Shown one piece after another: positions 16,423-32,496 of a DNA stretch of 35,075 nucleotides (position 1 is the stretch's first letter; the number at the start of each line of letters is the position of its first letter). The DNA is taken from the NCBI GenBank assembly GCA_001770815.1, contig MESD01000020.1, forward strand, positions 1,961-37,035, in the 5' to 3' direction. The notes beneath the pieces are model-generated. The model did no database searches. It was not told the origin of the DNA and saw nothing but the letters and a program-made list of their open reading frames with translations. Origin of the DNA: Burkholderiales bacterium RIFCSPHIGHO2_12_FULL_69_20. Its GTDB lineage: Bacteria > Pseudomonadota > Gammaproteobacteria > Burkholderiales > Burkholderiaceae_C. Made by a program: the position numbers and the translations under genes.

Positions 16423-18239
16423 GCGAACTCCTTGTCACGGCAGCGCTGGCCGGCTTGCGTGGTGTTGAGCAGGAACTTCTGCATGTCCCAGGCGCCGGTG
16501 GGGCAGCGCTCGGCGCACAGGCCGCAGTGCAGGCAGACGTCCTCGTCCTTGACCATCGCGCGCCCGCTCTTGAGCTCGGTCGACACGTACAGGTCTTGCG
16601 TGGTGTTGGTGGCGGGGGCTTTCAGCCGCCCGCGCACCTCGGCCTCGTCGGCCTCGTGGCCCACCGGGGTGAAGGTGATGCAGTCCATCGGGCAGATGTC
16701 GACGCAGGCATCGCACTCGATGCAGGTGTCGCGGTTGAAGACCGTCTGCACGTCGCAGTTCAGGCAGCGCTCGGCCTCCTTGAAGGCGGTGGCGGCGTCG
16801 AAGCCCAGTTCCACCTCGACGCGGATGCTGGCCAGCGCCTTCTCGGCCGCGGCCCAGGGCACCTTGGAGCGCACGTCTTCCGACACGTCGTTGTGATAAC
16901 TCCACTCGTGGATGCCCATCTTCTGCGACATCAGGTGGGTCATCGGCGGCGGCCGGCGCGCCGGGTCTTCACCGTTGACGAAGCGGTCGATCGACACCGC
17001 CGCCTCGTGGCCATGCGCCACCGCGGTGATGATGTTCTTGGGGCCGTAGGCCGCATCGCCGCCGAAGAACACCCGCGGCACGGTCGCCTGGAAAGTGTCG
17101 GTCTTGAGCACCGGCAGGCCCCAGCGGTCGAACTCGATGCCACTGTCGGCCTCGATCCACGGGAAGGCGTTTTCCTGGCCCACCGCCACCAGCACGGTGT
17201 CGCAGGGCACGAAGACATCCGGCGCGCCGGTGGGCACCAGGTTGCGCCGGCCCTTGGCGTCGTACTGCGCCTCGACGATCTGAAAGGTCATGCCGATGAG
17301 GCGGCCGCCCTCGTGATCGAAGTGCTTGGGCACGTGGAAGTTGAGGATGGGGATGCCTTCATGCAGCGCGTCTTCCTTCTCCCAGGGCGAGGCCTTCATC
17401 TCGTCGAAGCCGCTGCGCACGATGACCTTGACGTCCTGGCCACCCAGGCGCCGGGCCGAGCGGCAGCAGTCCATCGCGGTGTTGCCACCGCCGAGCACGA
17501 TGACGCGCTGACCCACGCTGCTGATGTGGCCGAACGACACCGAGGCCAGCCAGTCGATGCCGATGTGGATTTGCGCGGCGGCCTCCTGCCGGCCGGGCAG
17601 GTCGAGGTCACGCCCACGCGGTGCGCCGCAACCCACGAACACCGCATCGAAGCCCTGGTCCAGCAGCGCGTTCATCGACTCGATGCGCTGGCCGCTCTTG
17701 AACCTGACGCCCAGGTCGAGGATGTAGCCGGTCTCTTCGTCGATCACCTCCTCGGGCAGGCGAAAGCGCGGGATCTGGGTGCGGATGAAGCCGCCGGCCT
17801 TGGCCTCGCCGTCGAACACGGTGACCTCGTAGCCCAGCGGGGCCAGGTCGCGGGCGACCGTCAACGACGAAGGCCCGGCACCGATGCAGGCCACCCGCTT
17901 GCCGTTGAACGGTGCGATGGCGGGCATGCGCGACCTGACGTCGTCCTTGTAGTCGGCCGCCACACGCTTGAGCCGGCAGATGGCCACCGGTTCAGGCGTG
18001 CTGCCGTTGTTCTCTTCGACCCGGCTGCGGCGGCAGGCGGGCTCGCAGGGCCGGTCGCAGGTGCGGCCCAGCACCCCGGGAAACACGTTGGACACCCAGT
18101 TGATCATGTAGGCATCGCTGTAGCGGCCTTGCCCGATCAGGCGGATGTACTCCGGCACGGGGGTGTGGGCCGGACAGGCCCACTGGCAGTCCACGACCTT
18201 GTGGAAGTAGGCCGCGCCGGCGGCATGGGTGAGTTGCAC
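16419..18239 (-). CDS. GltD-like FAD/NAD(P) oxidoreductase with two C-terminal [4Fe-4S] sites (KorC-type partner)
   Basis: A 606-residue flavoprotein. The N-terminus has the cysteine-rich Fe-S region of glutamate synthase small subunits (C18, C22, C61, C65, C69). The first Rossmann motif is IGAGPSS at 119-125 (FAD), and the second, VLGGGNTAMD near 246-255, would bind NAD(P)H. C-terminal ferredoxin clusters are CIECDACVDICP near 501 and CLHCGLCAERCP near 566. No large glutamate synthase subunit is nearby, so it is not GltD. Being first in the kor operon with an ATGA overlap, it probably links NAD(P)H and ferredoxin to KorAB. The start is GTG at 18239, chosen for the aaggaga site 7 bp upstream and the conserved N-terminus. 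Confidence 0.85.
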   Translation of the reverse strand: MQLTHAAGAAYFHKVVDCQWACPAHTPVPEYIRLIGQGRYSDAYMINWVSNVFPGVLGRTCDRPCEPACRRSRVEENNGSTPEPVAICRLKRVAADYKDDVRSRMPAIAPFNGKRVACIGAGPSSLTVARDLAPLGYEVTVFDGEAKAGGFIRTQIPRFRLPEEVIDEETGYILDLGVRFKSGQRIESMNALLDQGFDAVFVGCGAPRGRDLDLPGRQEAAAQIHIGIDWLASVSFGHISSVGQRVIVLGGGNTAMDCCRSARRLGGQDVKVIVRSGFDEMKASPWEKEDALHEGIPILNFHVPKHFDHEGGRLIGMTFQIVEAQYDAKGRRNLVPTGAPDVFVPCDTVLVAVGQENAFPWIEADSGIEFDRWGLPVLKTDTFQATVPRVFFGGDAAYGPKNIITAVAHGHEAAVSIDRFVNGEDPARRPPPMTHLMSQKMGIHEWSYHNDVSEDVRSKVPWAAAEKALASIRVEVELGFDAATAFKEAERCLNCDVQTVFNRDTCIECDACVDICPMDCITFTPVGHEADEAEVRGRLKAPATNTTQDLYVSTELKSGRAMVKDEDVCLHCGLCAERCPTGAWDMQKFLLNTTQAGQRCRDKEFA

Positions 18240-18603: not shown

Positions 18604-21048
18604 ATGACGAACTTGTCTCATGTGCGACATCTGGCCTCCGGGCTGCTGCTGTCTCTGCTGGTCGCCTGCGGCGGTGGTAGCGATCCGGCGCCGGCGGCGC
18701 CACCGGTCGCGCCACCTGCGGCGGCGGCCACCGTCAAGGACGCCCTCGCTGCCGCTGCGGCCGTGGCCAACAACGACACGGCCACCAACGCCGCGGCATC
18801 CTTCACCGTGCTGCAGGCTGCGGGCGTGCCTGCGGTCACGGTGGCCAGCCCGCCGAAGGTCAACTTCGCCGTGTTCTCCGACGGTGCAGTCAAGACTGGC
18901 CTCAGCAACGCCAACGCACGTTTCGCGCTCGCCAGATTGGTGCCCGGCACCAACGGCGATCCTGACCAGTGGGTGAGCTATGTCTACCGCAAGGAGACGG
19001 CCGCCGCCGGCATCGGCCCCAACGGCACGCCGGCGCTGGCCACGGCCATGCAGGCCACCACCGACACGAGCACCGCGGCGCAGTTGGTCTACAACGCCGA
19101 CGGGTACTACACCTATACCTTTTCGACGGACATCACCGATCCGGCCAAGACCAACGGCGTGGTGTACGAGCCAACCCGCACGCACCGCATTGCGATCCAG
19201 CTGAGCTACACCAATGCAGCCGGCGAGACGGTGCTGGTGAATCCGTACTTCGACTTCACGATCGACGCCAACGGCAAGTCGGTGGCCGTGACTGATGCCA
19301 GCAAGACCCGCAAGATGACCGATGTGTCGTCGTGCAACGGTTGCCACGAGAAGCTGTCGCTGCACGGCGGCGGTCGTGTCGACACGCAGTACTGCGTGAT
19401 GTGCCATAACCCCAGCACGGTGGATGCCAACAGCGGCAACAGCCTGAACCTGGCCACGATGACCCACAAGATCCATGCGGGCCGGCTGCTCAAGAGCAAG
19501 CTGGCCACCGGCGGCGAAGATTACGCCATCTGGGGTTACGGCAACAGCAAGCACGACTATGCCGAGGTGGGCTTCCCGCAAGACCTGCGCAACTGCACGG
19601 TCTGCCACAACGGCAGCAACCCCGACACCCCGCAGGGCGACAACTGGAAGACCAAGGTCTCGAAGGAAGCCTGCCTGACCTGCCATGCCAACAACACCGG
19701 GTCGGACTGGGACACCAAGCACGTCAACTACGCGGTGCTGCTCAACGGTGCGGGTGCCACGGCCAAGGGCATGAGCAACCAGCAGTGCGTGGATTGCCAC
19801 AAGCCGGGCACCAACATCGCGCCCGACCGCGTGCACTGGAACCAGAACGAGGAAAACGCCGCCAAGTACAAGATGAACATCGACAGCGCCACCTACGACG
19901 CTGCCAACCGCAAGGTGGTGGTCACCTACAGCCTGGTCGATCCGAGCAACGGCAACGCGGCCTACAACCTGGTGGCCGCCGACTGCGCCAGCACCACGGT
20001 GCCGACCTGCAGCACCAGCACCAGGTTCGGCAACCTGCGCTTCTACCTGGCCTACCAGAACATGGTGGGGCAGCTGGGCGCGGTGACCGAGTTCTCGGCC
20101 TACAACAACGGCGGCAGCAGCGCCAACGCCTATGCCTACAAGGGCATCAACGACGGCGGCAATCGCTACACGGTCGACATCCCGCTGCCCGCCGACACGG
20201 CCACCGCGGTAGCCAGTGGCACCGCACGGGTGGTCAGCATCGGGCAGATCAAGGAGCCGCAGCTGCAGGCCAAGTGGGCCACCGACCCGCGGCCCGAGGT
20301 GGTGCCGCTGACGCTGGTCAACACCGTGGTCCAGCACAGCTACAAGGACGTGGCGCTGACCGGCAGCCTGCAGGCGCGGCGCGACGTGGTGTCCAACGAC
20401 AAGTGCAACGTCTGCCACGGCGCGCTGGGCACGACCTCGGGCTCCAACACCCTGGCGGAAGCCTTTCACCGAGGCGCCAGAAACACCGTCGAGTCGTGCG
20501 TGATCTGCCACGACGCCAACCGCGGCTCCAGCGGCAACATGATGACCAGCGGGCTGAACCTGTACGAGCCTTACCAGTTCAAGCGCATGATCCACGGCAT
20601 CCACGGCAACTCCAAGCGCACCTATCCGTTCACTCATGGCAACCGGGTGGTCGGCGCGTTCGCCAAGGACGGCAGTTCGCTCACCGGTGGCGCACCCCTG
20701 GCCAGCACGGTCGAGAACTACGCGGCGGAGGTGGCCTATCCGCAGGTCGGCCTGAACTGCAACGCCTGCCACGTGAACAACTCCTACAAGACCGACAAGA
20801 GCACGTTGGGCTCGGTGGTGTTCAAGGACACCGGTGTCACCGACCCGAACCTGTGGAAGGTGATCTCGCCCAAGGCGGCCAGCTGCACCGGCTGCCACGA
20901 CTCGAGCAGCGCGATCGGCCACGTCACCACCTTTGGCGGTTCGTCGTTCGGCAACCTGGCGCAGAACGCCCGACCGCAGGAAACCTGCGATGACTGCCAT
21001 GCACCGGGTGGCTTCAAGGGTGTGGACGCGGTCCACGGCCAGAAGTAG
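18604..21048 (+). CDS. mtrC: OmcA/MtrC-family decaheme outer-membrane lipoprotein cytochrome
   Basis: An 814-residue exported cytochrome with exactly ten CxxCH heme motifs. The lipobox LLVAC gives lipidated C22, followed by GGG, so it is an outer-membrane lipoprotein. Hemes 1-5 fall between C244 and about 399 (CNGCH, CVMCH, CTVCH, CLTCH, CVDCH). Hemes 6-10 fall between C601 and about 799 (CNVCH, CVICH, CNACH, CTGCH, CDDCH). The two pentaheme blocks are separated by a beta-rich domain, and another beta domain precedes the first, matching the four-domain plan of MtrC/OmcA. It would exchange electrons with extracellular metals, flavins or electrodes. The start at 18604 follows ggagaagg and directly yields the signal peptide. 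A hairpin terminator lies 22 bp downstream. Confidence 0.93.
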   Translation: MTNLSHVRHLASGLLLSLLVACGGGSDPAPAAPPVAPPAAAATVKDALAAAAAVANNDTATNAAASFTVLQAAGVPAVTVASPPKVNFAVFSDGAVKTGLSNANARFALARLVPGTNGDPDQWVSYVYRKETAAAGIGPNGTPALATAMQATTDTSTAAQLVYNADGYYTYTFSTDITDPAKTNGVVYEPTRTHRIAIQLSYTNAAGETVLVNPYFDFTIDANGKSVAVTDASKTRKMTDVSSCNGCHEKLSLHGGGRVDTQYCVMCHNPSTVDANSGNSLNLATMTHKIHAGRLLKSKLATGGEDYAIWGYGNSKHDYAEVGFPQDLRNCTVCHNGSNPDTPQGDNWKTKVSKEACLTCHANNTGSDWDTKHVNYAVLLNGAGATAKGMSNQQCVDCHKPGTNIAPDRVHWNQNEENAAKYKMNIDSATYDAANRKVVVTYSLVDPSNGNAAYNLVAADCASTTVPTCSTSTRFGNLRFYLAYQNMVGQLGAVTEFSAYNNGGSSANAYAYKGINDGGNRYTVDIPLPADTATAVASGTARVVSIGQIKEPQLQAKWATDPRPEVVPLTLVNTVVQHSYKDVALTGSLQARRDVVSNDKCNVCHGALGTTSGSNTLAEAFHRGARNTVESCVICHDANRGSSGNMMTSGLNLYEPYQFKRMIHGIHGNSKRTYPFTHGNRVVGAFAKDGSSLTGGAPLASTVENYAAEVAYPQVGLNCNACHVNNSYKTDKSTLGSVVFKDTGVTDPNLWKVISPKAASCTGCHDSSSAIGHVTTFGGSSFGNLAQNARPQETCDDCHAPGGFKGVDAVHGQK

Positions 21049-21069
21049 GCGCCAGCGCTGTCGTCAGCG

Positions 21070-21103
21070 TGGGAGGGCTTTTGCAGGCCCTCCCATTTTG
21101 TTT
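21070..21103 (+). terminator. Rho-independent terminator after mtrC
   Basis: A perfect 9-bp stem, TGGGAGGGC (21070-21078) with GCCCTCCCA (21087-21095), has an 8-nt loop and is followed by a T-rich run (ttttgttt). It sits 22 bp after the mtrC stop and 85 bp before the mtrA start, so it can terminate or attenuate mtrC transcripts before mtrA. Confidence 0.85.
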
Positions 21104-21187
21104 GGTGGACCACCGCCGCCGCGGGGCTGGGTGCCGCGATCGGACCTGACCATGGGCCCGGGATACTGGCAATTGAGGGGGATTCGA

Positions 21188-22159
21188 ATGCGGATCAAGC
21201 GTCTGTTGGCTGCCGTCACCTTGGGCCTGTGGGCACCGCTGGCAGGGTTGTCGCTGGCCTGGGCCGCCGCCGGTGACGAACGCTCGGCGGTCTGCGTGGA
21301 ATGCCACGACGACCTGCCCGACATGGGCCGCTCGGCCCATGTCACCGCCGCCGACCCGCGCACGCCCGACTGCGTGGCCTGCCACGGCCCCAGCACGGCG
21401 CATGCAAAGAAGCTGCGCGGCCAGAAGCAGGGCAAGCCCGACCGCGCTTTCACCGGCGACGATGCGCTGACCGCGCGCGACAGCAGTGCCGTGTGCCAGG
21501 GCTGCCACGACAAGGACGCCAAACGCGCGCTGTGGGCGGGCAGCCAGCACCACAACGCCGACGTGGCCTGCAGCACCTGCCACCAGGTGCACACCAACCA
21601 CGACAAGACGCTGGCCAAGGCCACGCAGGCCGAGACCTGCTACGCCTGCCACAAGGCGCAGCGCGCCCAGTACAGCCGGCCGTCGCGCCACCCGGTGCCC
21701 GAAGGCCAGATGAGCTGCTCGGATTGCCACAATGCGCACGGCTCGGCCGGTGCCATGCTGGCCCGGCGCGACAGCACCAATGCCACCTGCTACACCTGCC
21801 ACGCCGAGAAGCGCGGGCCGTTCGTGCATGCGCACGAGCCGGTGGCCGACGATTGCAGCCACTGCCACAGCCCGCATGGCAGCACGGTGCCGGCGATGCT
21901 CAAGGCCCGCCCGCCGATGCTGTGCCAGCAATGCCACACGCCGCACGTGGCGGGTGGCGTGGGCGCCGTGGGCGGACAGCCGGGCGTGTTTGCCCCCAAG
22001 GTGCCTGGGCAGAGCGGGCCGGCCGTCACCGCCGTCACCAGCGGCAAGAACGTCGTGAACCTGTGGCAAGGGCGCAGCTGCATGAACTGCCATGCCCAGG
22101 TGCACGGCTCGAACAACCCGTCGACGAGCAGCGGGGTGCCCCTCTTGCTGGGGCGCTGA
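21188..22159 (+). CDS. mtrA: MtrA/PioA/DmsE-family periplasmic decaheme cytochrome
   Basis: A 323-residue protein with a Sec signal peptide (cleavage near residue 27, LAWA-AAGD) and ten CxxCH motifs from C36 (CVECH) to C298 (CMNCH). In order they are CVECH, CVACH, CQGCH, CSTCH, CYACH, CSDCH, CYTCH, CSHCH, CQQCH and CMNCH. Length, heme number and the DDLPDMGRSAHV start match MtrA, which sits inside the MtrB porin as a wire across the outer membrane. The ATG at 21188 follows agggggа-type SD (aggggga, 4 bp upstream) and starts the signal peptide; upstream reading is unsupported. The porin gene follows after 31 bp, so the two form a transcription unit. Homologues also serve Fe(II) oxidation (MtoA, PioA), so direction is open. 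Confidence 0.93.
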   Translation: MRIKRLLAAVTLGLWAPLAGLSLAWAAAGDERSAVCVECHDDLPDMGRSAHVTAADPRTPDCVACHGPSTAHAKKLRGQKQGKPDRAFTGDDALTARDSSAVCQGCHDKDAKRALWAGSQHHNADVACSTCHQVHTNHDKTLAKATQAETCYACHKAQRAQYSRPSRHPVPEGQMSCSDCHNAHGSAGAMLARRDSTNATCYTCHAEKRGPFVHAHEPVADDCSHCHSPHGSTVPAMLKARPPMLCQQCHTPHVAGGVGAVGGQPGVFAPKVPGQSGPAVTAVTSGKNVVNLWQGRSCMNCHAQVHGSNNPSTSSGVPLLLGR

Positions 22160-22190
22160 GGCCATGCATCGCAACATCCGGGGAAGCACC

Positions 22191-24386
22191 ATGCACCACG
22201 ACGGTCGGCACTTTCAACTGCGCCAGCGTGCCCTGGCATGGGCGCTGCTGGCCGCGTTCGGGCCGGTGCTGGCCCAGGGCGAGGTGGTGAATGCCAGCGT
22301 CACCGTGGGCGCGGGCCTGATGATGGGTGACGCGGCCGACCGCGCCTGGTTCGGCCAGTACAACGGCCTGCGCTACGGCGACAGGGCGCTGGGTGTGCTG
22401 GATCTGCGCTACCACCGGCGCAGCGATGCCGCCGGCACCGAGCAGATCGACGTGCTGGGCACCCGCCTGCTCACCAACACACGCGAATTGAGCCTGCGCT
22501 GGCAGCAGCAGGGGCGCTGGCGCCTCAGTGCCGACATCGGTCAGAGCCAGCGTCACGATCCCTACACCCTGCGCACCGGGCTGGTCGGTGCCGGCAGCAC
22601 CACGCCCGAGGTGGTGCCGGTCGCGATTGCCGGCGGCACCGACCGGGACCTCAAGCTCAAGCGCACCAGCGTGGGCGTGGGGATGTGGACGGCCTTGTCG
22701 CCGCGCTTCGATCTCGACATCAGCCTCAAGAGCGAAGAAAAGCGCGGCGAACGCCTGTTCGGCATGGGCATGAACTGCCCCTTGCCGGTGACACCCGGCT
22801 GCCGCGGCGCCACCACCGCCCACACCGGCTGGGCGCTGCTGGCCCTGCCCGAACCGGTGAACGCCCGTCACAGCCAGATCGAGGCCCGGGTGAGTTATGC
22901 CGGCGAGTCGCTGCGCCTGAGCGGCGGCTATTACGGCTCGTTCTACAACAACGCGCATGGCGCGATGTCACCCCGCGTGCCCGGCAGCCTGAACAACGCC
23001 CTGGGCGAGTTGCTGCCGCTCAACACCGGGTTGCAGGCGCTGTTGAACCTGCCAGTCGCGCTGGCCCCCGACAACCAGGCGCACCAGTTCGATGTCACCG
23101 GCAACTACACGGTGGCGAGCCACACGCAGATGCGCTTCAAGCTCGCGTTCGGCCGTGCCGAGCAGCACCAGGATTTCCGGGCCGCCGGCTTCCTGGACGC
23201 GCCCGCCGGCGTGGCCAACCTGGGTGGGCGGATCAACACCACGCTGGCCGAGGTGGGCGTGTCGTCGCGGCCACTGCCCAAACTGACGCTGGTGGCCGAT
23301 CTGCGCCAGGAGGACAAGGACGACGCCACGCCGCTGGCGGTCTACAACGTGGCCGGCACGCTGACCTACACCAACCGCGCGCTGCCCAGCCGGCGCACAC
23401 GGGCCAAGGCGAGTGCGGCCTACCAGTTCAGCAGCGCCCTGAAGGGCGTTCTGGGCGCCCACCACGAAGCCATCGACCGCGGCGTCTTCACCGCCAGCAG
23501 CGCCGTGGGGGGCCTCAGTGCGCTGCGCCAGAAGACCGACGAAACGGGCCTGCGGGCCGAATTGCGTCGCCTGATGTCCGAGAGCTTCAGTGCCTCGCTC
23601 AGCCTCGAATCCAGCCAACGCCGCGGCAGCAACTGGCTGCGGCCCGGCAGCACGCTCGGCGTCATCGAGGTGCCCGATCCGCTGGATCCGGCCAACGGTT
23701 TCGGCAACACGGCGATCTTCATGCCCACGCTGGCCGATCGCCAGCGCGACAAGATCAAGCTGCAGGCCGATTGGCAGCCGAGTGCCGCGATGTCGGTCCA
23801 GTTCAGCGTCGAGGATGGCCAGGACCGCTACCGTGTCAGCAGCCAACAGGGGCTGCGCCATTCGGGCATCCGCCAGGTCAGCATCGACGGCAGTTATGCG
23901 CTGTCCGACAAATGGGGCGTCACCGGCTTCTTCAGCTACGGCGACCAGCAGCTGCACCAATCGCGAGCCGAGGGCTACATCCTGTCGTTCCGCAATGCCA
24001 ACACCCACTTCGGCCTGGGGCTGACCGGCAAGCCCAGCGACAAGCTGCAGGTGGGCGCCGAGCTGAACTGGAGCGACGACAAGAACGTCTACGCCCAGGC
24101 ACTGGACGGCTACGCGCCGCCCGACAGCGTGGCGCTGCTGGCGGCCACGGGGGGCCTGCCCGACATCGTGTTTCGGCAGTCCACCCTGAAGCTGTTCGTC
24201 AAGGCCGACATCGACAAGCGCTCATCGGCCCGCATCGACCTGGTGCACCAGCGCGCGCGGCTGAACGACTGGGGCTGGGGCTACAACGGCGTGCCGTTCG
24301 CCTATTCAGACGGCGCCACGCTGTGGCAGCAGCCGAACCAGCAGGTGACGGCGATGGCGGTGAGCTACACCTATCAGTGGAAATGA
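22191..24386 (+). CDS. mtrB: MtrB/PioB-family outer-membrane beta-barrel porin
   Basis: A 731-residue protein with a signal peptide (ALAWALLAAFGPVLAQ) and then alternating amphipathic strands to the C-terminal YTYQWK, typical of a large outer-membrane barrel ending near an aromatic residue. Length and the position after MtrA match MtrB. It would enclose MtrA and dock MtrC. The mature N-terminus (GEVVNASVTVGAG) has no CXXC, a motif present in MtrB of Shewanella-type metal reducers; the only cysteines are the pair in MNCPLPVTPGC. I prefer the ATG at 22191 because it has ggggaag about 6 bp upstream; the ATG at 22164 is an alternative. A hairpin lies just past the stop. Confidence 0.9.
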   Translation: MHHDGRHFQLRQRALAWALLAAFGPVLAQGEVVNASVTVGAGLMMGDAADRAWFGQYNGLRYGDRALGVLDLRYHRRSDAAGTEQIDVLGTRLLTNTRELSLRWQQQGRWRLSADIGQSQRHDPYTLRTGLVGAGSTTPEVVPVAIAGGTDRDLKLKRTSVGVGMWTALSPRFDLDISLKSEEKRGERLFGMGMNCPLPVTPGCRGATTAHTGWALLALPEPVNARHSQIEARVSYAGESLRLSGGYYGSFYNNAHGAMSPRVPGSLNNALGELLPLNTGLQALLNLPVALAPDNQAHQFDVTGNYTVASHTQMRFKLAFGRAEQHQDFRAAGFLDAPAGVANLGGRINTTLAEVGVSSRPLPKLTLVADLRQEDKDDATPLAVYNVAGTLTYTNRALPSRRTRAKASAAYQFSSALKGVLGAHHEAIDRGVFTASSAVGGLSALRQKTDETGLRAELRRLMSESFSASLSLESSQRRGSNWLRPGSTLGVIEVPDPLDPANGFGNTAIFMPTLADRQRDKIKLQADWQPSAAMSVQFSVEDGQDRYRVSSQQGLRHSGIRQVSIDGSYALSDKWGVTGFFSYGDQQLHQSRAEGYILSFRNANTHFGLGLTGKPSDKLQVGAELNWSDDKNVYAQALDGYAPPDSVALLAATGGLPDIVFRQSTLKLFVKADIDKRSSARIDLVHQRARLNDWGWGYNGVPFAYSDGATLWQQPNQQVTAMAVSYTYQWK

Positions 24387-24394
24387 GCGACTAG

Positions 24395-24418
24395 GCTGCC
24401 CGGGCCGGGCGGCTTTGT
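24395..24418. terminator. Probable terminator between mtrB and the convergent NapC-type gene
   Basis: An 8-bp GC-rich stem with one G-U pair, GCTGCCCG (24395-24402) and CGGGCGGC (24406-24413), has a 3-nt loop and is followed by tttgt. It lies within the 33-bp gap between convergent stops, where a terminator is expected. The T run is short, so termination may be weak. Confidence 0.5.
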
Positions 24419-24419
24419 C

Positions 24420-25049
24420 TCACTGCAGCGACGACGTCTTCACCGGGGCCTTGGGCTCCTCTGGCTCGACGGGCTCCTGGTGCGCCACGCCGGTGTGGCA
24501 CTCGATGCAGGTGGCCTTGCCCGAACTGAACTTCTTGTGCTGCTTGACGGCATCCTCGTTCTGCTTGGCGGCGTCCATCGCCTCGGGGGTGTGGCAGGTG
24601 CGGCAGTTGGCCGAGTTGTCAGCCTTCATCTCGTCCCACACGTGGTTGGCCAGTTCCCAGCGCCTGGCGTCGAACTTCGCCTGCGTGGAGATGGTGCCGC
24701 GCGCCTCGGCGATGGCATCGCGGATGCCGGCTTGCGCCTTGTAGATCAGCTTGGCCGGGTAGGTGTGGGGCACGTGGCAGTCGCTGCAGCCCGCCTGCAC
24801 GCCGGTGCGGTTCTTGCCATGCACCGAGGCCTTGTACTCGGGGTAGATGAACTGCGTGTGCGAATGGCAGGCCGTGCCGCAGAACTCGTTGCTGCCGGTG
24901 ACCGCCATGGCCACCTGGGTGCCGGCGGTGGCGACGAAGCCGATGATCAGGCCGACCAGCAACAGCGCAAACACCGACCACCGCGCCGACGGCGAGAACA
25001 ACCAGGTGAAGAACCGGCGAATCACGCCAGGCCTGCCGGAATCTGCCAT
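24420..25049 (-). CDS. NapC/NirT/CymA-type tetraheme quinol dehydrogenase
   Basis: A 209-residue inner-membrane cytochrome. An uncleaved N-terminal anchor lies at about 24-45 (SVFALLLVGLIIGFVATAGTQ), then a periplasmic heme domain. Heme motifs are C57-GTA-C61-H62, C88-SD-C91-H, C149-RT-C152-H and C181-IE-C184-H, so the first has three residues between the cysteines instead of two. Spacing and the EYKASVHGKNRTGVQAGCSDCHVPH block are typical of the NapC/NirT family. Such proteins oxidise menaquinol or ubiquinol and pass electrons to periplasmic partners, as CymA does in Shewanella; CymA homologues in Mto loci may run in reverse. It lies convergent to mtrB with a 33-bp gap. A 12-bp tandem repeat and an FNR-like site lie upstream. 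Confidence 0.9.
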   Translation of the reverse strand: MADSGRPGVIRRFFTWLFSPSARWSVFALLLVGLIIGFVATAGTQVAMAVTGSNEFCGTACHSHTQFIYPEYKASVHGKNRTGVQAGCSDCHVPHTYPAKLIYKAQAGIRDAIAEARGTISTQAKFDARRWELANHVWDEMKADNSANCRTCHTPEAMDAAKQNEDAVKQHKKFSSGKATCIECHTGVAHQEPVEPEEPKAPVKTSSLQ

Positions 25050-25074
25050 TGCCTACCCCTGGTTGCTGGCCAAA

Positions 25075-25098
25075 GTTGTTGACCACGTTGTTGACCAC
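25075..25098. repeat. Perfect 12-bp tandem duplication upstream of the NapC-type gene
   Basis: gttgttgaccac occurs twice in direct succession (25075-25086 and 25087-25098), 26-49 bp upstream of the NapC-type ATG. On the transcribed strand each unit reads GTGGTCAACAAC. It falls between the FNR-like site and the start codon, where the promoter should be, so it might be an operator pair or a slippage product. Confidence 0.6.
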
Positions 25099-25113
25099 GC
25101 TCGCTTGAGCTCA

Positions 25114-25127
25114 TTGACGGCGATCAC
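25114..25127. promoter_or_regulatory. FNR-like site upstream of the NapC-type gene
   Basis: TTGAC-GGCG-ATCAC matches 8 of the 10 defined bases of TTGAT-N4-ATCAA, with one mismatch in each half. Its centre is about 71 bp before the ATG, a plausible place for class II activation (site near -41) with a short leader. Confidence 0.42.
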
Positions 25128-25265
25128 CGCCACGCTGGTGCTGGGCCACGGCTCAGAACCTGACTGACCGACGACCCTGGCCATGGGTCGGGCCGAGGTG
25201 CCAATGCCGCGCAGCCCAAGACCGGGGCAGGGCGTTCAGCCGCCGGCCGCCGCCGTCTGGCCGGC

Positions 25266-25577
25266 CTACCTGGACGCGAGCACGACCGCCACCAAGGCCT
25301 TGATGTCGGCGTCGGTCGCTTCGACCTTTTTGTGGTCGTCGTCGTCGGACATCTTGCCGCCCGTCTTCAGGTAGACGAACAGCTTGTCCGACGCGTCGGC
25401 CTTGCCGGCGTACTTCTCGGCCACCGAAGCCCACGACGGCCCTTTCTTGGTCGTCTTGGCCGTGTGGCACTTGCTGCACTTCTGCGCTGCGGCCAGATCT
25501 TCGCCCGGCCCGGCGAACACAGGGCCGCTGAGGGCCAGCACGAAGGAGGCGACGGCAAGGGGCAAGTCGATGCGCAT
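25266..25577 (-). CDS. Small periplasmic class I monoheme cytochrome c (MtoD-like position)
   Basis: A 103-residue protein with a signal peptide (LPLAVASFVLALSGPVFA, cleavage near residue 22) and a mature part of about 80 residues. Heme binding is C34-SK-C37-H38, and the likely axial Met is M76 in KTGGKMSDDDD. This is the compact cytochrome c5/c551 size. It would shuttle electrons in the periplasm, most likely between the NapC-type protein and MtrA. A small monoheme cytochrome (MtoD) also accompanies mtoAB and cymA in Sideroxydans. I chose the ATG at 25577 for its ggag ribosome binding site and the signal peptide. It has its own upstream FNR-like site, and 216 bp separate it from the next gene on the strand. 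Confidence 0.87.
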   Translation of the reverse strand: MRIDLPLAVASFVLALSGPVFAGPGEDLAAAQKCSKCHTAKTTKKGPSWASVAEKYAGKADASDKLFVYLKTGGKMSDDDDHKKVEATDADIKALVAVVLASR

Positions 25578-25709: not shown

Positions 25710-26174
25710 TCACCGATCAACCCCGTCTGGCGCGCGCTGCGGCGGCGGCACTGCGGTGACCAGCGCCTGATGCACGAAGGCGTCGACCAGGGTGTCGGCG
25801 ATGCGGTTGAACAGCGGCCCGGCGGCGCGCGTCATGAAGGCGCTGTCGAACTCGTAGTCGAGCGCAAAGTTCACCTTGCAGGCGTCGCTGGCCAGTTCGG
25901 TCAGGCGCCACTCGCCCTCGAAGCGACGGAACGGCCCGCGCTCCAGGTGGATGGCCATGTAGCCCGGCCGTTGCTTGGGGTTGCGCGTGCGCAAATCGAA
26001 GTTCATGCCGTGCCAGCACACCCGCAGATCGGCCGATACCAGTTGGTCGTCACGGCTGACGATCTGCGCGTCGGCGCACCAGGGCAGGAAGCGCGGGTAG
26101 TGCTCGGCCGCCTCGATCAGATCGAACAGGCGCGTGGCCGGCTGGGGCACCAGGGCCGAACGGCGCACGATCAT
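25710..26174 (-). CDS. COQ10/RatA-like START-domain protein
   Basis: A 154-residue single START/SRPBCC domain. The family pattern is clear at the N-terminus (RSALVPQPATRLFDLIEAAEHYPRFLPWC) and in the middle (LERGPFRRFEGEWRLTEL, CKVNFALDYEFDS). It is usually annotated RatA toxin or ubiquinone-binding COQ10. Members bind quinone in a hydrophobic cavity, and COQ10 assists quinone function. The usual RatB partner is not next to it, whereas the neighbours upstream are menA and ubiE, so a quinone-related role is more likely than a toxin. It follows the Bug-type gene by 38 bp on the same strand and is probably last in that operon. The ribosome binding site is weak. Confidence 0.82.
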   Translation of the reverse strand: MIVRRSALVPQPATRLFDLIEAAEHYPRFLPWCADAQIVSRDDQLVSADLRVCWHGMNFDLRTRNPKQRPGYMAIHLERGPFRRFEGEWRLTELASDACKVNFALDYEFDSAFMTRAAGPLFNRIADTLVDAFVHQALVTAVPPPQRAPDGVDR

Positions 26175-26212: not shown

Positions 26213-27202
26213 TCAGAGCCGCGCGATCCGCCCTTCAATGACCAGCGGGCGGTACAGCGCGATGTCGGCCTCGATGCGATCGCGCAGGCCTTGCGGCGTG
26301 GACGGCGTGAGCTCGAAGCCGGCCTGCTCGGCCTGCGCCCGCACCTCGGGCAGGGCCATCACCGCGGTGACGGCCTGATGCAGTTGCGCCAGCAGCGGCG
26401 CCGGTGTGCCGGCCACCGCCACCAGCGCGGCCCAGGGGTGCATCGCCACTGGCGGGCCACCCGCCTCGGCCAGCGTGGGCAGGTGCGGGTGCGTGGCCAG
26501 GCGCTGGCGTGCGGCCACGGCCAGCGGGCGCAGCTTGCCGGCAGCCAGCAGGCCGGCCGTGCTGTTGACGCTGAAGGCGGTGAAGTCGACATCGCCCGAG
26601 GCCACCGCGGTGAACAGCGCACCGGCGTCCTTGAAGGGCACGTGCAGCAGGCGCAGGCCAGCCGCCCGGGCCATGGTTTCGACCGCCAACTGGCTGGCGT
26701 GGCCGTTGCCCAGCGTGGCGTAGCTCACGCCTTCGGGCGTGCGGCGCGCGGCCTCCAGCAGATCGGCCACGTTGTGCAGCCGGCTGCTGCCGCCGGTCAG
26801 CAATACGAAGGTGGCGCGGAACAGCAGCGTCAGCGGCGCCAGATCCCGCACCGGGTCGTAGGGCAGGCTGGCATGCAGCAGCGGGTTGACGGCCAGCGTG
26901 GCGGTGTCGGCCAGGTACAGCGTGTGGCCGTCGGGCGGGGTGCGGCGCACGTCGCCAAAGGCCACGATGCCCGAGGCGCCAGGCTTGTTGTCCACCAGCA
27001 CCGGCTGGCCCCAGCGCTGCGCCAGCCGCTCGGCCACGCTGCGCGCCACCACGTCGGGGCCGATGCCCACCGAGTAGGGCACCACCAGACGCACCGCGCG
27101 CTCGGGAAAGCCAGCGCCGCGGTGGGCCCAGGCCGATGCCGTGGGGCCGGCCGCGGCCAAGGCGGCCAGCAGGCTGCGGCGCTGGATCACGCCGACGTTC
27201 AT
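26213..27202 (-). CDS. Bug-family (TctC-type) periplasmic substrate-binding protein
   Basis: A 329-residue exported binding protein. The signal peptide contains QRRSLLAALAAAGP, an RR motif that resembles a Tat signal. The mature part shows Bug-family landmarks: FPERAVRLVVPYSVGIGPDVVARSVAERL, GQPVLVDNKPGASG, LYLADTATLAVNPLL, and later PLAVAARQRLATHPHLPTLAEAG. Bug proteins bind small carboxylates and are abundant in Burkholderiales, most without their own permease. The ATG at 27202 overlaps the menA stop (ATGA), so it is translationally coupled to menA; no TctA/TctB permease is in the window. The ligand and the reason for linkage to quinone genes are unknown. Confidence 0.88.
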   Translation of the reverse strand: MNVGVIQRRSLLAALAAAGPTASAWAHRGAGFPERAVRLVVPYSVGIGPDVVARSVAERLAQRWGQPVLVDNKPGASGIVAFGDVRRTPPDGHTLYLADTATLAVNPLLHASLPYDPVRDLAPLTLLFRATFVLLTGGSSRLHNVADLLEAARRTPEGVSYATLGNGHASQLAVETMARAAGLRLLHVPFKDAGALFTAVASGDVDFTAFSVNSTAGLLAAGKLRPLAVAARQRLATHPHLPTLAEAGGPPVAMHPWAALVAVAGTPAPLLAQLHQAVTAVMALPEVRAQAEQAGFELTPSTPQGLRDRIEADIALYRPLVIEGRIARL

Positions 27203-28140
27203 GCCAGCACCGTGCCCAACAAGGTGGCGGCCGACAGCAGCGCGGCAAACCACAGCTCGAGCCGGAAGGTGCGGAACAGGATCTCGTTGAAGGCCAGGCC
27301 CGGCGCGCAGCGGCCCAGATCGCGCCGCAACTGCAGGGCGGTGGGCACCAGCACCAGCGGCAGCAGCAGGGCGGGTGAGCGCGCCAGCCAGGCCATCGCC
27401 GGCACCAGCGCAAACGGCCCCAGCACCAGCAGGGCGTAGAGCGCACGCGAGGCCGCATCGCCATAGCTGACCGCAAAGGTGTTGCGACCGACCAGCCGGT
27501 CGTGGGCGATGTCGCGGTGGTTGTTGACGGCCAGCGCCGCGGCGGCCAGCGCGCCGATGGCCACCGACGCCAGCATGCTGACGCTGCCGATCTGGTCGGT
27601 GAGCACCCAGTCGGTGCCCATCACCGCCACCAGGCCGAAGAACACGAACACCGTCAGCTCGCCAAAGGGCGTGTAGGCGATGGGTCTGGGCCCGCCCATG
27701 TAGGCCAGCGCCGCCAGCAGCGAGGCCACGCCGATCGCCAGCACCGGCCAGCCGCGATAGGCCATCAGCGCCACACCCAGGCCGGTGGCCACCAGCGCCA
27801 CCACCACGATGCCGGCGCGCACATGGCGCACGCTGAGCCAGCCGTTGGCGGTGGCGCGTGGCAGGCCGGTGCGGGTGCCGCTGCACTCGGCACCACGCAC
27901 GGTGTAGCCCACGTCGTTCTGCATGTTGGTGACCACCTGCACCAGCAGCGCCGCACCCAGCACCAGCAGCGCGGCGAGCAGGTCGATGCTGCCGTTGCGG
28001 GCGAAGCCCAGCGTGGCGCCCACCAGCACGGGGCTGAACGCCACCAGCAGGCTGTGCGGCCGGATGGCCACCATCCAGGCGGCCACGGAGCCTGAGCGCA
28101 CCTGGGCGGTGCTGACGACGGACCCTCGGTTGGCTGTCAT
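27199..28140 (-). CDS. menA: UbiA-family prenyltransferase, MenA-type (1,4-dihydroxy-2-naphthoate prenyltransferase)
   Basis: A 313-residue polytopic membrane enzyme with about eight or nine hydrophobic helices. The first prenyl-diphosphate/Mg motif is NMQNDVGYTVRGAE near 95-107, with the MenA-like continuation TRTGLPRATANGWLS. The second is NNHRDIAHDRLVGRNTFAV near 215-233. MenA attaches the polyprenyl tail to 1,4-dihydroxy-2-naphthoate, giving demethylmenaquinone. The ATG at 28140 has ggagg about 9 bp upstream. It lies 128 bp downstream of ubiE, whose product methylates demethylmenaquinone, supporting a menaquinone role. The first motif has Y where canonical enzymes often have D (NDxxD), so another UbiA-type substrate is possible. 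No other men genes are visible. Confidence 0.78.
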   Translation of the reverse strand: MTANRGSVVSTAQVRSGSVAAWMVAIRPHSLLVAFSPVLVGATLGFARNGSIDLLAALLVLGAALLVQVVTNMQNDVGYTVRGAECSGTRTGLPRATANGWLSVRHVRAGIVVVALVATGLGVALMAYRGWPVLAIGVASLLAALAYMGGPRPIAYTPFGELTVFVFFGLVAVMGTDWVLTDQIGSVSMLASVAIGALAAAALAVNNHRDIAHDRLVGRNTFAVSYGDAASRALYALLVLGPFALVPAMAWLARSPALLLPLVLVPTALQLRRDLGRCAPGLAFNEILFRTFRLELWFAALLSAATLLGTVLA

Positions 28141-28268: not shown

Positions 28269-29006
28269 TCAGTGGGTGCTGCGCATCGGTGGGCGCCTGC
28301 CCATGTGGATGCAGGCGATGCCCAGGCTGAGGTTGCGGTAGTGCACGCCTTCGAAGCCGGCCTGCTCGATCAGCGCCTGGAAGGCCCGCTGGTCGGGGAA
28401 GCGGCGGATCGACTCGACCAGGTAGCTGTAGGCCTCGGGGGCCTGTGCGATCCAGGCGCCCAGGCGCGGGATCACGGTGAACGAGAACAGGTTGTAGAAC
28501 GGCCGCACCGGCGCGTAGGGGCGCGAGAACTCCAGGCACAGGAAACGGCCGCCGGGCTTGAGCACCCGCAGGATCTCGCCCAGCGCGTCGTCCAGGCGGG
28601 TGACGTTGCGGATGCCGAAGGCGATGGTCAGCGTGTCGACCGACGCGGAGGCCAGCGGGATGGCCTCGCCGGTGCCTTCCAGCCACTCGACGCCGACATG
28701 GCCACGCGCGCGGCCCACGTCCATCATCGGCAGGCTGGGGTCGCAGACAGTGACCCGCCGACCGGGCGCGGCCATCAGCGCGGCCACGTCGCCGGTGCCG
28801 CCGGCCAGGTCGACGATGAACTGGCGGTCGCGCGGTGCGGCCAGGCGCACCAGGGTGCGCTTCCACAGCCGGTGGATGCCCAGGCTCATCAGGTCGTTCA
28901 TCAGGTCGTAGCGCGCGGCCACGGCTTCGAAGACACGGCGGATGCGCTGCTCGCGCTCCAACTCGTCAACGCTGTGCTTGCCGAAGGTCTTGGACAGATC
29001 GGTCAT
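28269..29006 (-). CDS. ubiE: Ubiquinone/menaquinone C-methyltransferase UbiE
   Basis: A 245-residue class I SAM-dependent methyltransferase. The N-terminus VFEAVAARYDLMNDLMSLGIHRLWKR is diagnostic for UbiE. SAM motif I is VDLAGGTGDVA (about 69-79). Further blocks are IAFGIRNVTRLDDALGEILRVLKPGGRFLCLEFS and PEAYSYLVESIRRFPDQ. It methylates demethylmenaquinone and the ubiquinone intermediate 2-polyprenyl-6-methoxy-benzoquinol. The ATG at 29006 is used because the conserved N-terminus begins there; residues further upstream are unsupported. No strong ribosome binding site is seen. It heads the minus-strand set ubiE-menA-bug-START. It could serve ubiquinone alone, but the adjoining menA argues for both quinones. 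Confidence 0.93.
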   Translation of the reverse strand: MTDLSKTFGKHSVDELEREQRIRRVFEAVAARYDLMNDLMSLGIHRLWKRTLVRLAAPRDRQFIVDLAGGTGDVAALMAAPGRRVTVCDPSLPMMDVGRARGHVGVEWLEGTGEAIPLASASVDTLTIAFGIRNVTRLDDALGEILRVLKPGGRFLCLEFSRPYAPVRPFYNLFSFTVIPRLGAWIAQAPEAYSYLVESIRRFPDQRAFQALIEQAGFEGVHYRNLSLGIACIHMGRRPPMRSTH

Positions 29007-29105
29007 AGGGCAATCAGCGTAGCAGAGCGACCGGCGCGCTTGATCACGCCTGAGCACGCGCTTGACCCAGCCCGGCCCGCGCCTGACTGCACCGTGGGTC
29101 AGAAT

Positions 29106-29117
29106 GTCAGATCTGAC
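29106..29117. promoter_or_regulatory. Perfect palindrome GTCAGATCTGAC upstream of a small gene
   Basis: A 12-bp perfect palindrome within a longer imperfect one (ggtcag at 29097-29102 also pairs with ctgacc at 29113-29118). It lies 38 bp before the ATG at 29156 and inside the 149-bp gap between divergent genes. It may be an operator; no T run follows, so it is not a terminator. Confidence 0.3.
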
Positions 29118-29155
29118 CAGGCAGGGGTGCTGCCGCAAACCACATTGCATCGAAC

Positions 29156-29712: not shown

Positions 29713-31725
29713 ATGAGTCCTGTGGGAATGAGCCTGCTGATGATGCTGGCCTTCGCGGGCTTTGCCACGCTGGCCTGGCGCAAGCTGCAGCTGGTGCTGG
29801 CCTTGCAGCCCGAGCCGCGCTGGGACCAGCCGGTCGAGCGCCTGCGCAGCGTGCTGGTCAACGGCCTGCTGCAGCGGCGCATGGTGCAGCGCGAGTGGCG
29901 ACCGGGGCTGATGCACGCGGTGATCTTTCTCGGCTTCATGTCGCTGCTGCTGCGCAAGCTGCAGTTGATCGCGATCGGATACCACGAGCCGGCGGTGTTC
30001 CCGGATTGGTTCGGCGGGCCGTTCGCGGCGTTCAAGGACTTCATCGAGCTGGCGGTGATCGCCGCGGTGCTGTATGCCTTCTGGCGCCGCTTCGTGGCCC
30101 GGCCGGCGCGGCTGGAGCCCAACCGCGAGGCGGTGCTGGTGCTGGGGCTGATCCTGGTGATCATGCTCACCGACCTGGCCTTCGACGGCTTCCGCTTCAC
30201 GCTGCTGTCGGCCAGCGCGCCGGGCATCGCGCACGAGCGGGCCTTCGCCTTTGCCGGGGGCGCGGTGGCGAGTGTTTTCCAGGGCTGGTCGCCCGGCGTG
30301 CTGCAGGCCGGTTATGGGCTGTCGTACTGGACGCAGATGGTGGTGGTGTTCTGCTTCCTGGTGCTGCTGCCCACCGGCGAGCACTTCCACATCGTCACCG
30401 CATTGCCCACGCTGTTCTTCCGCCGCGGGCGGCCGGCCAACCAGGTGCCCAGCGTCGACATCGACAGGCTGATGGCGGCCACCGACGAGGCCGACATGAA
30501 GGCCGGCGTGCGCACCGCCGCCGACCTGGTGTGGAAGGACGGGCTGGACGTCTTCACCTGCACCGAATGCGGCCGCTGCACGGACGCCTGCCCGACCCAC
30601 CTGACCGGCAAGCCGCTGTCGATGAAGAGGGTCAACGACCGCCTCAAGCACCACCTGGTCGAACAGCGTGACCTGCTCATCGCCCATGACCCGAAGGCCG
30701 AACTGCCGGCGCTGGTGGGCACCGTGATCAGCGAGGACACGCTGTGGGCCTGCACCACCTGCGGCTACTGCGAGGCGGCCTGCCCGATCGAGCTGGAGCA
30801 CCTGCCGCGCTTCCTGCGCATGCGCCAGCATCAGGTGATGATCGCCGGCGAATTTCCGCACGCGCTGAAGAAGGTGTTCGAGGCCTACGAGTCGCAAGGC
30901 AACCCCTGGGGCCTGCAGGCCGCTCAACGTGGTGATTGGGCGCAGGGCCTGAATGTGCCGGTGGTGCGCAGCGCCGAGGACATGGCCGCGCTGGACTGCC
31001 TGTTCTACGTCGGCTCGGCGATGAGCTTCGATCCACGTGGGCAGAAGATCGCGCGCGCCTTCGTCACCATCCTGCAACGTGCCGGCGTGCGCTTCGGCAT
31101 CCTGGGGCCCGACGAGGGCGCCACCGGCGAATGTGTGCGGCGCGTGGGCAACGAGATGCTGTTCCAGCAACTGGCCGCCACGCTGGTGGAGACGCTCAAT
31201 CAGCGTGGCGTCCAGCGCATCGTCACCTGCGACCCGCATGCGCTGAATTCGCTGCGCAACGAGTACCCCGAGTTCGGCGGCCACTACGCGCTGGTGCACC
31301 ACAGCCAGTTCATCGCCGAGTTGCTGGCGCAGGGCCGCATCCGTGTGAGCAACGGGTTGATGCGGGTGGTCTTCCACGACCCCTGCTACCTGGGCCGGCA
31401 CAACGGTGAGTTCGACGCCCCGCGCGAGGTGCTGGGCCAGCTGTGCAGCGACGCGCCGCTGGAGATGGCGCTCTCGCGCGAGAAGGCGATGTGCTGCGGC
31501 GCCGGTGGCGGGCGCATGTGGCTGGAAGAGACCATCGGCAAGCGCATCAACATCACCCGGGTGGAACAGGCGCTGGCACTGAAGCCGCAGACGATTGCCA
31601 CCGCCTGCCCCTACTGCGCGGTGATGATGGCCGACGGGTTGGCTGCGCTGCCCGAGGCCGGCGCCACGCAGTCACGCGACATCGCCGAACTGGTGGCCGA
31701 GGCACTGGTGGCCGGGACGGCCTGA
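29713..31725 (+). CDS. ETF:menaquinone oxidoreductase-like membrane Fe-S protein (HdrD-type, NarI-like N-terminus)
   Basis: A 670-residue fusion. The N-terminal part is a NarI-like membrane domain of about five helices (LLMMLAFAGFATLAW, LMHAVIFLGFMSLLL, IELAVIAAVLYAF, VLVLGLILVIML, WTQMVVVFCFLVLL) with candidate heme histidines (H68, GEHFH). Two [4Fe-4S] motifs follow at C283 (CTECGRCTDACP) and C347 (CTTCGYCEAACP), then two CCG domains. The second is complete (C558 in HDPCYLG, C594-C595 in CCGAGGG, C632 in CPYC). The first has lost its cysteines (YVGSAMSFDPRG, ATGEC, CDPHALN). This layout matches EMO/EtfD proteins that move electrons from ETF to menaquinone, though no etfAB is in the window. 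The ATG follows ggaggg by about 5 bp. Confidence 0.8.
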   Translation: MSPVGMSLLMMLAFAGFATLAWRKLQLVLALQPEPRWDQPVERLRSVLVNGLLQRRMVQREWRPGLMHAVIFLGFMSLLLRKLQLIAIGYHEPAVFPDWFGGPFAAFKDFIELAVIAAVLYAFWRRFVARPARLEPNREAVLVLGLILVIMLTDLAFDGFRFTLLSASAPGIAHERAFAFAGGAVASVFQGWSPGVLQAGYGLSYWTQMVVVFCFLVLLPTGEHFHIVTALPTLFFRRGRPANQVPSVDIDRLMAATDEADMKAGVRTAADLVWKDGLDVFTCTECGRCTDACPTHLTGKPLSMKRVNDRLKHHLVEQRDLLIAHDPKAELPALVGTVISEDTLWACTTCGYCEAACPIELEHLPRFLRMRQHQVMIAGEFPHALKKVFEAYESQGNPWGLQAAQRGDWAQGLNVPVVRSAEDMAALDCLFYVGSAMSFDPRGQKIARAFVTILQRAGVRFGILGPDEGATGECVRRVGNEMLFQQLAATLVETLNQRGVQRIVTCDPHALNSLRNEYPEFGGHYALVHHSQFIAELLAQGRIRVSNGLMRVVFHDPCYLGRHNGEFDAPREVLGQLCSDAPLEMALSREKAMCCGAGGGRMWLEETIGKRINITRVEQALALKPQTIATACPYCAVMMADGLAALPEAGATQSRDIAELVAEALVAGTA

Positions 31726-31758
31726 AACCCGCCCCGTGCAGGCCTGGCGATGTATCGA

Positions 31759-32360: not shown

Positions 32361-32496
32361 GAGCAGAACTCCTTGGCGTTGGGCCTTGTTCGCCCCGCAC
32401 CGTCTGCCGGCCGACCGCACCGGCGTTTGAGGAGCAGCGCTCATGCTGCGGCGCGGCAGGCTGAAGCGGACTGTTCGACGTCAACCTTTGCGCCCG

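What the first reader, a model, noticed from the sequence alone, without database searches (positions are those of the whole stretch)
18604..25577. A hybrid Mtr/Mto extracellular electron transfer locus in a betaproteobacterium
Seen: a ten-heme MtrC/OmcA-type lipoprotein, a ten-heme MtrA-type cytochrome, an MtrB-type barrel, a NapC/CymA-type quinol dehydrogenase and an ~80-residue mature monoheme cytochrome c sit side by side. Known: Shewanella metal reduction uses MtrCAB with CymA; Sideroxydans Fe(II) oxidation uses MtoAB, MtoD and a CymA homologue, without MtrC. This locus has parts of both. Inference: it is a complete cell-surface conduit that could run outward (Fe(III), electrode) or inward (Fe(II)), or both.
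Basis: partly seen in the sequence, partly recalled or inferred. Interest (0 to 1): 0.8.

Follow-up and report, generated by a model that had tools for sequence, protein, structure and literature searches.

The report
Electron-export conduit beside quinone genes
A betaproteobacterium carries a known kind of protein wire for passing electrons across its outer membrane, but the inner half of the wire is a rare variant whose genes sit with quinone-making genes in several relatives, which suggests a small respiratory chain for breathing on material outside the cell.

Summary
The five genes are mtrC 18604-21048, mtrA 21188-22159, mtrB 22164-24386 (+), a NapC-family gene 24420-25049 and a monoheme gene 25266-25577 (-). 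MtrCAB with Mto-type periplasmic parts in Burkholderiales is already published (Baker 2022, Group 4), so the 'hybrid' is not new as a kind.

Two things were missed. (1) The NapC is neither a typical CymA nor ImoA: three CXXCH plus heme I as CX3CHSH, with His where 30 of 35 compared NapCs have Met. With its probably bis-His monoheme partner it forms a separate clade. (2) In 4 of the 5 genomes where I found this pair, a menA over the family cut-off lies on the same contig, whether or not mtrCAB is beside it. menA and MtrC co-occur more than expected (7 genomes against 1.7, of 399). In three same-genus relatives complex I genes adjoin the mtr cluster.

I read it as an outward anaerobic chain: quinol, NapC, monoheme, MtrA/B/C, then Fe(III), humics or an electrode. 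Inward flow is less likely but not excluded. Puzzle: none of the five menA-bearing genomes of the genus shows a MenD over cut-off or any MqnC match.

The parts
18604..21048 (+). mtrC: decaheme OmcA/MtrC-family outer-membrane lipoprotein
   Evidence: 10 CXXCH, LVAC lipobox, TIGR03507 603.7 bits; PDB matches to Shewanella OmcA, MtrF, UndA chains
21188..22159 (+). mtrA: decaheme periplasmic cytochrome in the barrel
   Evidence: 10 CXXCH, TIGR03508 273.8 bits; 6r2q chain A 199.3 bits (that 6r2q is a Shewanella MtrCAB complex is recalled, the molecule name printed there is another)
22164..24386 (+). mtrB: outer-membrane barrel, without an N-terminal CXXC
   Evidence: TIGR03509 380.9 bits; only Cys205 and Cys213
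24420..25049 (-). NapC/NirT-family quinol dehydrogenase with heme I motif CX3CHSH
   Evidence: PF03264 197.3 bits; motif census and tree
25266..25577 (-). MtoD-like monoheme cytochrome, probably bis-His
   Evidence: PDB 4xxl_A 47.6 bits, best single-stretch match; His82 invariant in 9 aligned rows
25710..26174 (-). ratA-like (START/polyketide cyclase fold), between the monoheme gene and tctC; passenger or ancestral neighbour
   Evidence: PF03364 113.3 bits
26216..27208 (-). TctC/Bug periplasmic carboxylate-binding protein, next to menA in relatives
   Evidence: PF03401 194 bits; neighbourhoods; PDB relatives include terephthalate-binding proteins
27202..28140 (-). menA-family prenyltransferase (NDxxY variant)
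   Evidence: TIGR00751 140.6 bits, cut-off 102.15; motif
28272..29150 (-). ubiE/menG-family methyltransferase
   Evidence: TIGR01934 247.2 bits, cut-off 158.35; below the UbiE equivalog cut-offs
29713..31722 (+). Fe-S/CCG (DsrK/TfrB-like) redox protein, kept beside ubiE-menA in G009 and beside another menA in G254 and G141
   Evidence: PF02754 76.7 bits

Best explanation
The locus encodes an outward (respiratory) extracellular electron transfer chain. Quinol in the inner membrane is oxidised by the CX3CHSH NapC protein; the MtoD-like bis-His monoheme carries electrons across the periplasm to MtrA inside MtrB; MtrC passes them to Fe(III), Mn(IV), humics, an electrode or another cell. The conduit half (MtrA/B/C) is the Burkholderiales MtrCAB already known as Group 4. 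The inner half (NapC plus monoheme) is a separate module that is linked to menA and ubiE and has been joined to different conduits, so the partner quinone is probably a low-potential naphthoquinone. Shown: gene content, heme motifs, family membership, trees, linkage and co-occurrence. Inferred: localisation, electron order, direction, quinone identity, substrate.
For: Family scores and heme counts. Same five genes in the same layout in G018 (82, 92, 91, 95 and 83% identical). CX3CHSH NapC found in 5 genomes (G000, G009, G018, G152, G377), each with a monoheme of one 99* clade directly upstream. menA over cut-off on the same contig in 4 of 5: window, G009, G152, G377; in G009 the order is ubiE-menA-tctC-monoheme-napC-mtrC-mtrA-mtrB, and G377 uses a different menA lineage (46% identical). 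A separate link: menA directly beside mtrB in G391. In the 21 genus genomes all 5 with menA are among the 8 with MtrC (p 0.0028). Family samples of 399: MtrC 23, menA 29, both 7, expected 1.67, p 5.6e-4; without the window genome 6 of 22, p 0.0024. Complex I genes adjoin mtr in G018, G009 and G005. ES-1, which is thought to run inward, lacks menaquinone genes (PMC13390432, passage).
Against: No expression, redox or mutant data. 16 of 23 MtrC genomes in the family sample, and G003, G016 and G019 in the genus, have no menA over cut-off, so menA is not needed for MtrCAB. In many relatives ubiE-menA-tctC(-ratA) occurs without MtrC, so in the window the EET genes may only sit next to an older menA neighbourhood. 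In the fifth genome (G018) the over-cut-off menA is on another contig; beside the monoheme gene there is only a MenA-family gene at 82 bits, under cut-off. MenD, MenB and MqnC are not found over cut-off, so the naphthoquinone itself is unproven. MtrB lacks the CXXC that Shewanella MtrB has. ImoA, from an Fe(II) oxidiser, can itself oxidise quinol (PMC9600427), so NapC type does not fix direction. That the two family samples are the same 399 genomes is assumed from their shared handles.
Confidence: 0.6

Rival explanations
1. An inward, Mto-like Fe(II)/Mn(II)-oxidising pathway: MtrC binds the donor, electrons run through MtrA/B and the monoheme to the NapC, which reduces quinone.
For: MtrA groups with Mto-type loci (L081-L083, whose monoheme matches 4xxl at 141.5 bits) at 97* and apart from Shewanella; no CXXC in MtrB, as in those loci; a bis-His monoheme. 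Baker 2022 cites Ramlibacter lithotrophicus, a Group 4 relative, as expressing mtrCAB on Mn(II) in coculture (passage).
Confidence: 0.2
2. A reversible conduit used in both directions according to conditions.
For: Multiheme conduits are reversible in principle (general knowledge); ImoA oxidises quinol although it comes from an Fe(II) oxidiser.
Against: No feature here specifically calls for inward use; the linked genes are those of quinone synthesis and dehydrogenases.
Confidence: 0.15
3. The menA/ubiE linkage is accidental: a mobile EET cluster landed next to an existing ubiE-menA-tctC-ratA neighbourhood, and the NapC uses ubiquinol.
For: ubiE-menA-tctC-ratA occurs without MtrC matches in, for example, G259 and G110; ratA still stands between tctC and the monoheme gene in the window.
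Against: The monoheme-NapC pair follows menA in G377 with a different menA lineage and in G152 and G009 without ratA between; menA also abuts mtrB in G391.
Confidence: 0.25

Closest known systems
MtrCAB Group 4 of Burkholderiales (Baker et al. 2022, PMC8805035; passages seen)
   Same: mtrC-mtrA-mtrB with Mto-type periplasmic genes alongside; betaproteobacterial; the MtrA lies in the clade that also holds Ideonella sp. A 288 and Ramlibacter lithotrophicus, both named by Baker as MtrCAB-bearing
   Different: Inner-membrane partner here is a CX3CHSH NapC of another clade, on the opposite strand, with menA/ubiE next to it
Rhodoferax ferrireducens cluster (Zhong and Shi 2018, PMC6295460; passages and section 9 seen)
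   Same: mtrABC with cymA; its two CymA homologs also have CX3CH
   Different: mtrH there; the CX3CH NapCs beside Group 4 mtr that I could read (Ramlibacter, L038) have CX3CHEM, not CX3CHSH, and are about 40% identical. R. ferrireducens itself was not fetched
Sideroxydans lithotrophicus ES-1 Mto pathway (MtoA, MtoB, ImoA, MtoD)
   Same: MtrA/B lineage, a NapC-family protein and a bis-His monoheme
   Different: No MtrC in ES-1 (as the finding states); CXXCHxM heme I in ImoA; monoheme only 47.6 bits to 4xxl; ES-1 lacks menaquinone genes (PMC13390432, passages)
Shewanella MtrCAB-CymA
   Same: Decaheme MtrC and MtrA, barrel, NapC-family quinol dehydrogenase
   Different: CXXC in MtrB there; MtrA clades far apart; a monoheme carrier here instead of FccA/CctA

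Membership tests
MtrCAB conduit (Burkholderiales Group 4) | Decaheme MtrC/OmcA-family lipoprotein, decaheme MtrA and MtrB/PioB barrel in one cluster | tested here: met
MtrCAB conduit (Burkholderiales Group 4) | MtrA falls with Burkholderiales MtrC-bearing loci | tested here: met
   38-row clade, SH-aLRT 100*; Baker's own tree was not rebuilt
MtrCAB conduit (Burkholderiales Group 4) | Conducts electrons across the outer membrane | not testable with these tools
   needs electrode or mineral assays
Mto pathway | MtoAB without MtrC | tested here: not met
   MtrC present
Mto pathway | MtoD orthologous to the ES-1 protein | tested here: not met
   separate 7-row clade at 99* (only 88 columns); 47.6 bits to 4xxl against 141.5 for the L082 monoheme
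MtoD-like bis-His class I cytochrome | Distal His instead of Met | tested here: met
   His82 invariant in 9 rows, no conserved Met after the heme motif; inference from sequence
NapC/NirT family | N-terminal membrane helix and four heme sites, PF03264 | tested here: met
   197.3 bits; three CXXCH and one CX3CH
CymA/ImoA type | Heme I as CXXCH | tested here: not met
   CX3CHSH; Shewanella CymA and ES-1 ImoA themselves were not in the tree
MenA | TIGR00751 over cut-off | tested here: met
   140.6 bits, cut-off 102.15
MenA | First Asp-rich motif NDxxD (motif recalled) | tested here: not met
   NDVGY in the window and 22 of 35 rows
MenA | A DHNA-making pathway in the genome | tested here: inconclusive
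   MenD and MqnC over cut-off 0 of 21, MenB over cut-off 0 of 21 though the own genome has a MenB-like match at 302.1 of 342.7 bits; MqnA, MqnE not searched; genome 96.7% complete

The most novel reading that the evidence does not exclude
The CX3CHSH NapC, its bis-His monoheme, menA/ubiE and the TctC-type binding protein form a portable inner-membrane module that makes and uses its own low-potential quinone for extracellular respiration and that docks onto different MtrCAB conduits; because no known naphthoate route is seen in the genus, the quinone is either built from scavenged 1,4-dihydroxy-2-naphthoate, with TctC as its catcher, or by an undescribed route or as an undescribed quinone.
Probability: 0.25. 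Interest if true: 0.8.

Novelty: new variant of a known kind. Interest (0 to 1): 0.5.

Why it matters
If true, direction in these 'hybrid' loci could be predicted from the attached quinone genes rather than from Mtr or Mto names, and betaproteobacteria, usually thought of as ubiquinone users, would have an EET chain with its own quinone supply. It also exposes a testable gap: menA with no recognisable DHNA pathway, possibly a community-dependent (scavenging) EET.

Tried and rejected
Searching viral contigs with MtrA gave no relative. Plasmids: no MtrC match at 1e-30, and NapC matches only below 60% identity, the ten listed about 43%, so no support for a plasmid-borne locus in that collection. 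Rfam: no match at gathering score. Promoter scan: 0 sites; terminator scan: 8 against 5.2 expected by shuffling, so little weight. The 2-oxoacid oxidoreductase and GltD-like genes that diverge from mtrC in the window were considered as part of the system and dropped: no match above 120 bits to them in the loci then held from L023 on (one weak 28-35% match in L192), and G018 has complex I genes there instead. A stable menaquinone pathway was looked for and not found. No structure was predicted.

Rows dropped before counts: in the NapC and MtoD trees duplicate loci of the same gene (among them L025, L080, L113, L124, L125, L147, L148, L165) and ORFs outside the stated score and length limits; in the MtrA tree L080 and L050 as copies of L025 and L024; L116 and L175 hold the same menA, so 22 NDxxY rows are 21 genes. 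G391 was left out of the MtrC count because its MtrC is a fragment under cut-off.
Full report
What is there. The window (contig C20, 1961-37035 of 37035, of a 5.53-Mb genome, 96.7% complete) encodes mtrC, mtrA and mtrB on the + strand and, converging with them, a NapC-family gene and a monoheme cytochrome on the - strand. Family scores are well over cut-off for MtrC, MtrA and MtrB. It is the only MtrC-family and MtrB-family match in the genome. The nearest genome, G018, is the record 'Aquabacterium sp.' JAURXG010000115 (identical contig), and G017 of the same genus overlaps the record of Ideonella sp. A 288; so the window is from a Burkholderiales bacterium of that kind.

The conduit half is known. 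In a tree of 86 MtrA rows the window sits in a 38-row Burkholderiales clade (SH-aLRT 100*) with Ramlibacter, Rhodoferax, Polaromonas, Ideonella and others. That clade joins a 12-row clade whose fetched stretches show no MtrC (several are short contigs) and the Mto-type loci L081-L083 at 97*, apart from Shewanella. L082's monoheme matches 4xxl at 141.5 bits; that 4xxl is ES-1 MtoD is recalled. MtrB of the window has only Cys205 and Cys213, whereas the Shewanella and the same-genus Group-3-like MtrBs read have a CXXC near the N-terminus; in the window's clade only L046, L063 and L066 show a C..C, at positions 27-28 of the frame, in the likely signal peptide. So the barrel and MtrA are of the Mto side and MtrC is the extra part. 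Of the 80 loci fetched with MtrA, 7 (L036, L038, L044, L052, L055, L057, L080) show MtrC, NapC and MtoD-like genes in the stretch held (bit thresholds 100, 100, 45); contig ends make this a lower bound. Baker et al. 2022 already describe mtoC and mtoD homologs beside Group 4 mtrCAB (passages). The hybrid as such is therefore not new.

The inner half is unusual. The NapC has three CXXCH and a first heme site CGTACHSH. Among 35 NapC rows, five have CX3CHSH (95* clade), three CX3CHSM (sister), five CX3CHEM and 22 CXXCHEM. HMMER aligns the second His with the Met of the CxxCHxM motif of Desulfovibrio-type NrfH (organism recalled). CX3CH itself is known from Rhodoferax ferrireducens (section 9 of PMC6295460). 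NapCs of this type are rare: E 1e-60 or better in 3 of 399 family genomes (own included), in 3 of 21 genus genomes, and in 4 of 399 order genomes, of which the three besides the window have CX3CHSM. Each of the five CX3CHSH genes has a monoheme gene directly upstream, and those monohemes form, with two more from G005, a 99* clade (only 88 columns). The distal His is invariant in 9 aligned rows, no Met is, which fits the bis-His ligation reported for MtoD (passage of PMC11511738).

Linked quinone genes. Upstream of the pair on the same strand the window has ratA, tctC, menA and ubiE. The menA scores 140.6 bits to TIGR00751 (cut-off 102.15). In G009 the order is ubiE-menA-tctC-monoheme-NapC-mtrC-mtrA-mtrB with a quite different conduit (MtrA 39% identical); in G152 ubiE-menA-tctC-monoheme-NapC with no mtr gene on a 9.1-kb contig (its MtrCAB, with a second NapC and monoheme of the ordinary type, is on another contig); in G377 menA-monoheme-NapC on a 3.9-kb contig, with a menA only 46% identical to the window's; in G018 only an under-cut-off MenA-family gene adjoins and the better menA is elsewhere. 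In G391 another menA abuts mtrB. Co-occurrence: genus, all 5 menA genomes are among the 8 MtrC genomes of 21; family samples of 399, MtrC 23, menA 29, both 7, p 5.6e-4, or 6 of 22 and p 0.0024 without the window genome; by genus 7 genera hold both of 14 and 17 among 141, p 2.2e-4, but in g130 and g153 the two genes are in different genomes. These tests ignore relatedness. Against a strict link, 16 of 23 MtrC genomes have no menA over cut-off, and ubiE-menA-tctC(-ratA) also occurs without MtrC matches.

Complex I. Next to mtr in G018 (divergent from mtrC), G009 and G005 (after mtrB) lie complex I genes: NuoB, NuoD and NuoE by family in G018, NuoD in G009; NuoB 89% and 83% identical in G009 and G005. 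The window and the other loci from L023 on had no such match. Whether it is a second complex I was not tested.

Missing precursor. In the 21 genus genomes MenD over cut-off is 0 of 21 (best 90.2 of 244.2 bits), MqnC over cut-off 0 of 21, with matches only in two menA-less genomes (G015, G020, 322 and 325 of 428.1 bits), and MenB over cut-off 0 of 21, though the own genome has a MenB-like gene at 302.1 of 342.7 bits that also occurs in genomes without menA. The window's menA belongs to a group with NDVGY where others have NDxxD (22 of 35 rows, 21 genes). A TctC gene stands next to menA in 15 of the 21 NDxxY genes and 0 of 13 NDxxD rows, one of these cut by the contig end. Known Bug/TctC relatives in the PDB include terephthalate-binding proteins. 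A scavenging route for DHNA is my conjecture; a betaproteobacterial symbiont without either menaquinone pathway was earlier proposed to receive menaquinone or a soluble precursor from its partner (passages of PMC4053972), and DHNA-fed EET is reported for Lactiplantibacillus plantarum (search listing and abstract starts only).

Verdict. Conduit: known kind. Inner module and its menA linkage: a new variant that I did not find described in searches of the open-licence library. Outward respiration is the best reading (0.6). Recalled, from no call: potentials of menaquinone and ubiquinone, that CXXC is absent from MtoB and PioB, and Shi et al. 2012 (not seen).

Noticed in passing
13568-18239 (-): 2-oxoacid:acceptor oxidoreductase alpha (TIGR03710 577.7 bits) and beta with a GltD-like Fe-S/NAD(P) protein, diverging from mtrC over a 364-bp gap; not found beside mtr in the relatives read.
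   Followed up: partly
32892-35075 (-): FAD-oxidase/4Fe-4S/CCG protein (D-2-hydroxyacid dehydrogenase-like) running off the contig end; its G009 homolog lies next to a LutB/LldF-like partial protein.
   Followed up: partly
31614-32444 (-): Reading frame with an under-cut-off match to the ethylbenzene dehydrogenase heme-b domain (PF09459 26.3 of 33.3 bits); a 48% match lies after the NapC in G152.
   Followed up: no
21069-21096 (+): Strong hairpin with a T-rich tail between mtrC and mtrA (12 pairs), possibly lowering mtrAB against mtrC.
   Followed up: no
L030 13424-19318 (-): G005 has two monohemes of the window's clade beside its MtrCs, then a 490-residue frame with five CXXCH and one CX3CH (ImcH-like in length) and an 11-CXXCH frame.
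   Followed up: no
27202-28140 (-): menA with NDVGY in place of NDxxD, kept in 22 of 35 rows, and without a recognised DHNA pathway in the genus.
   Followed up: partly
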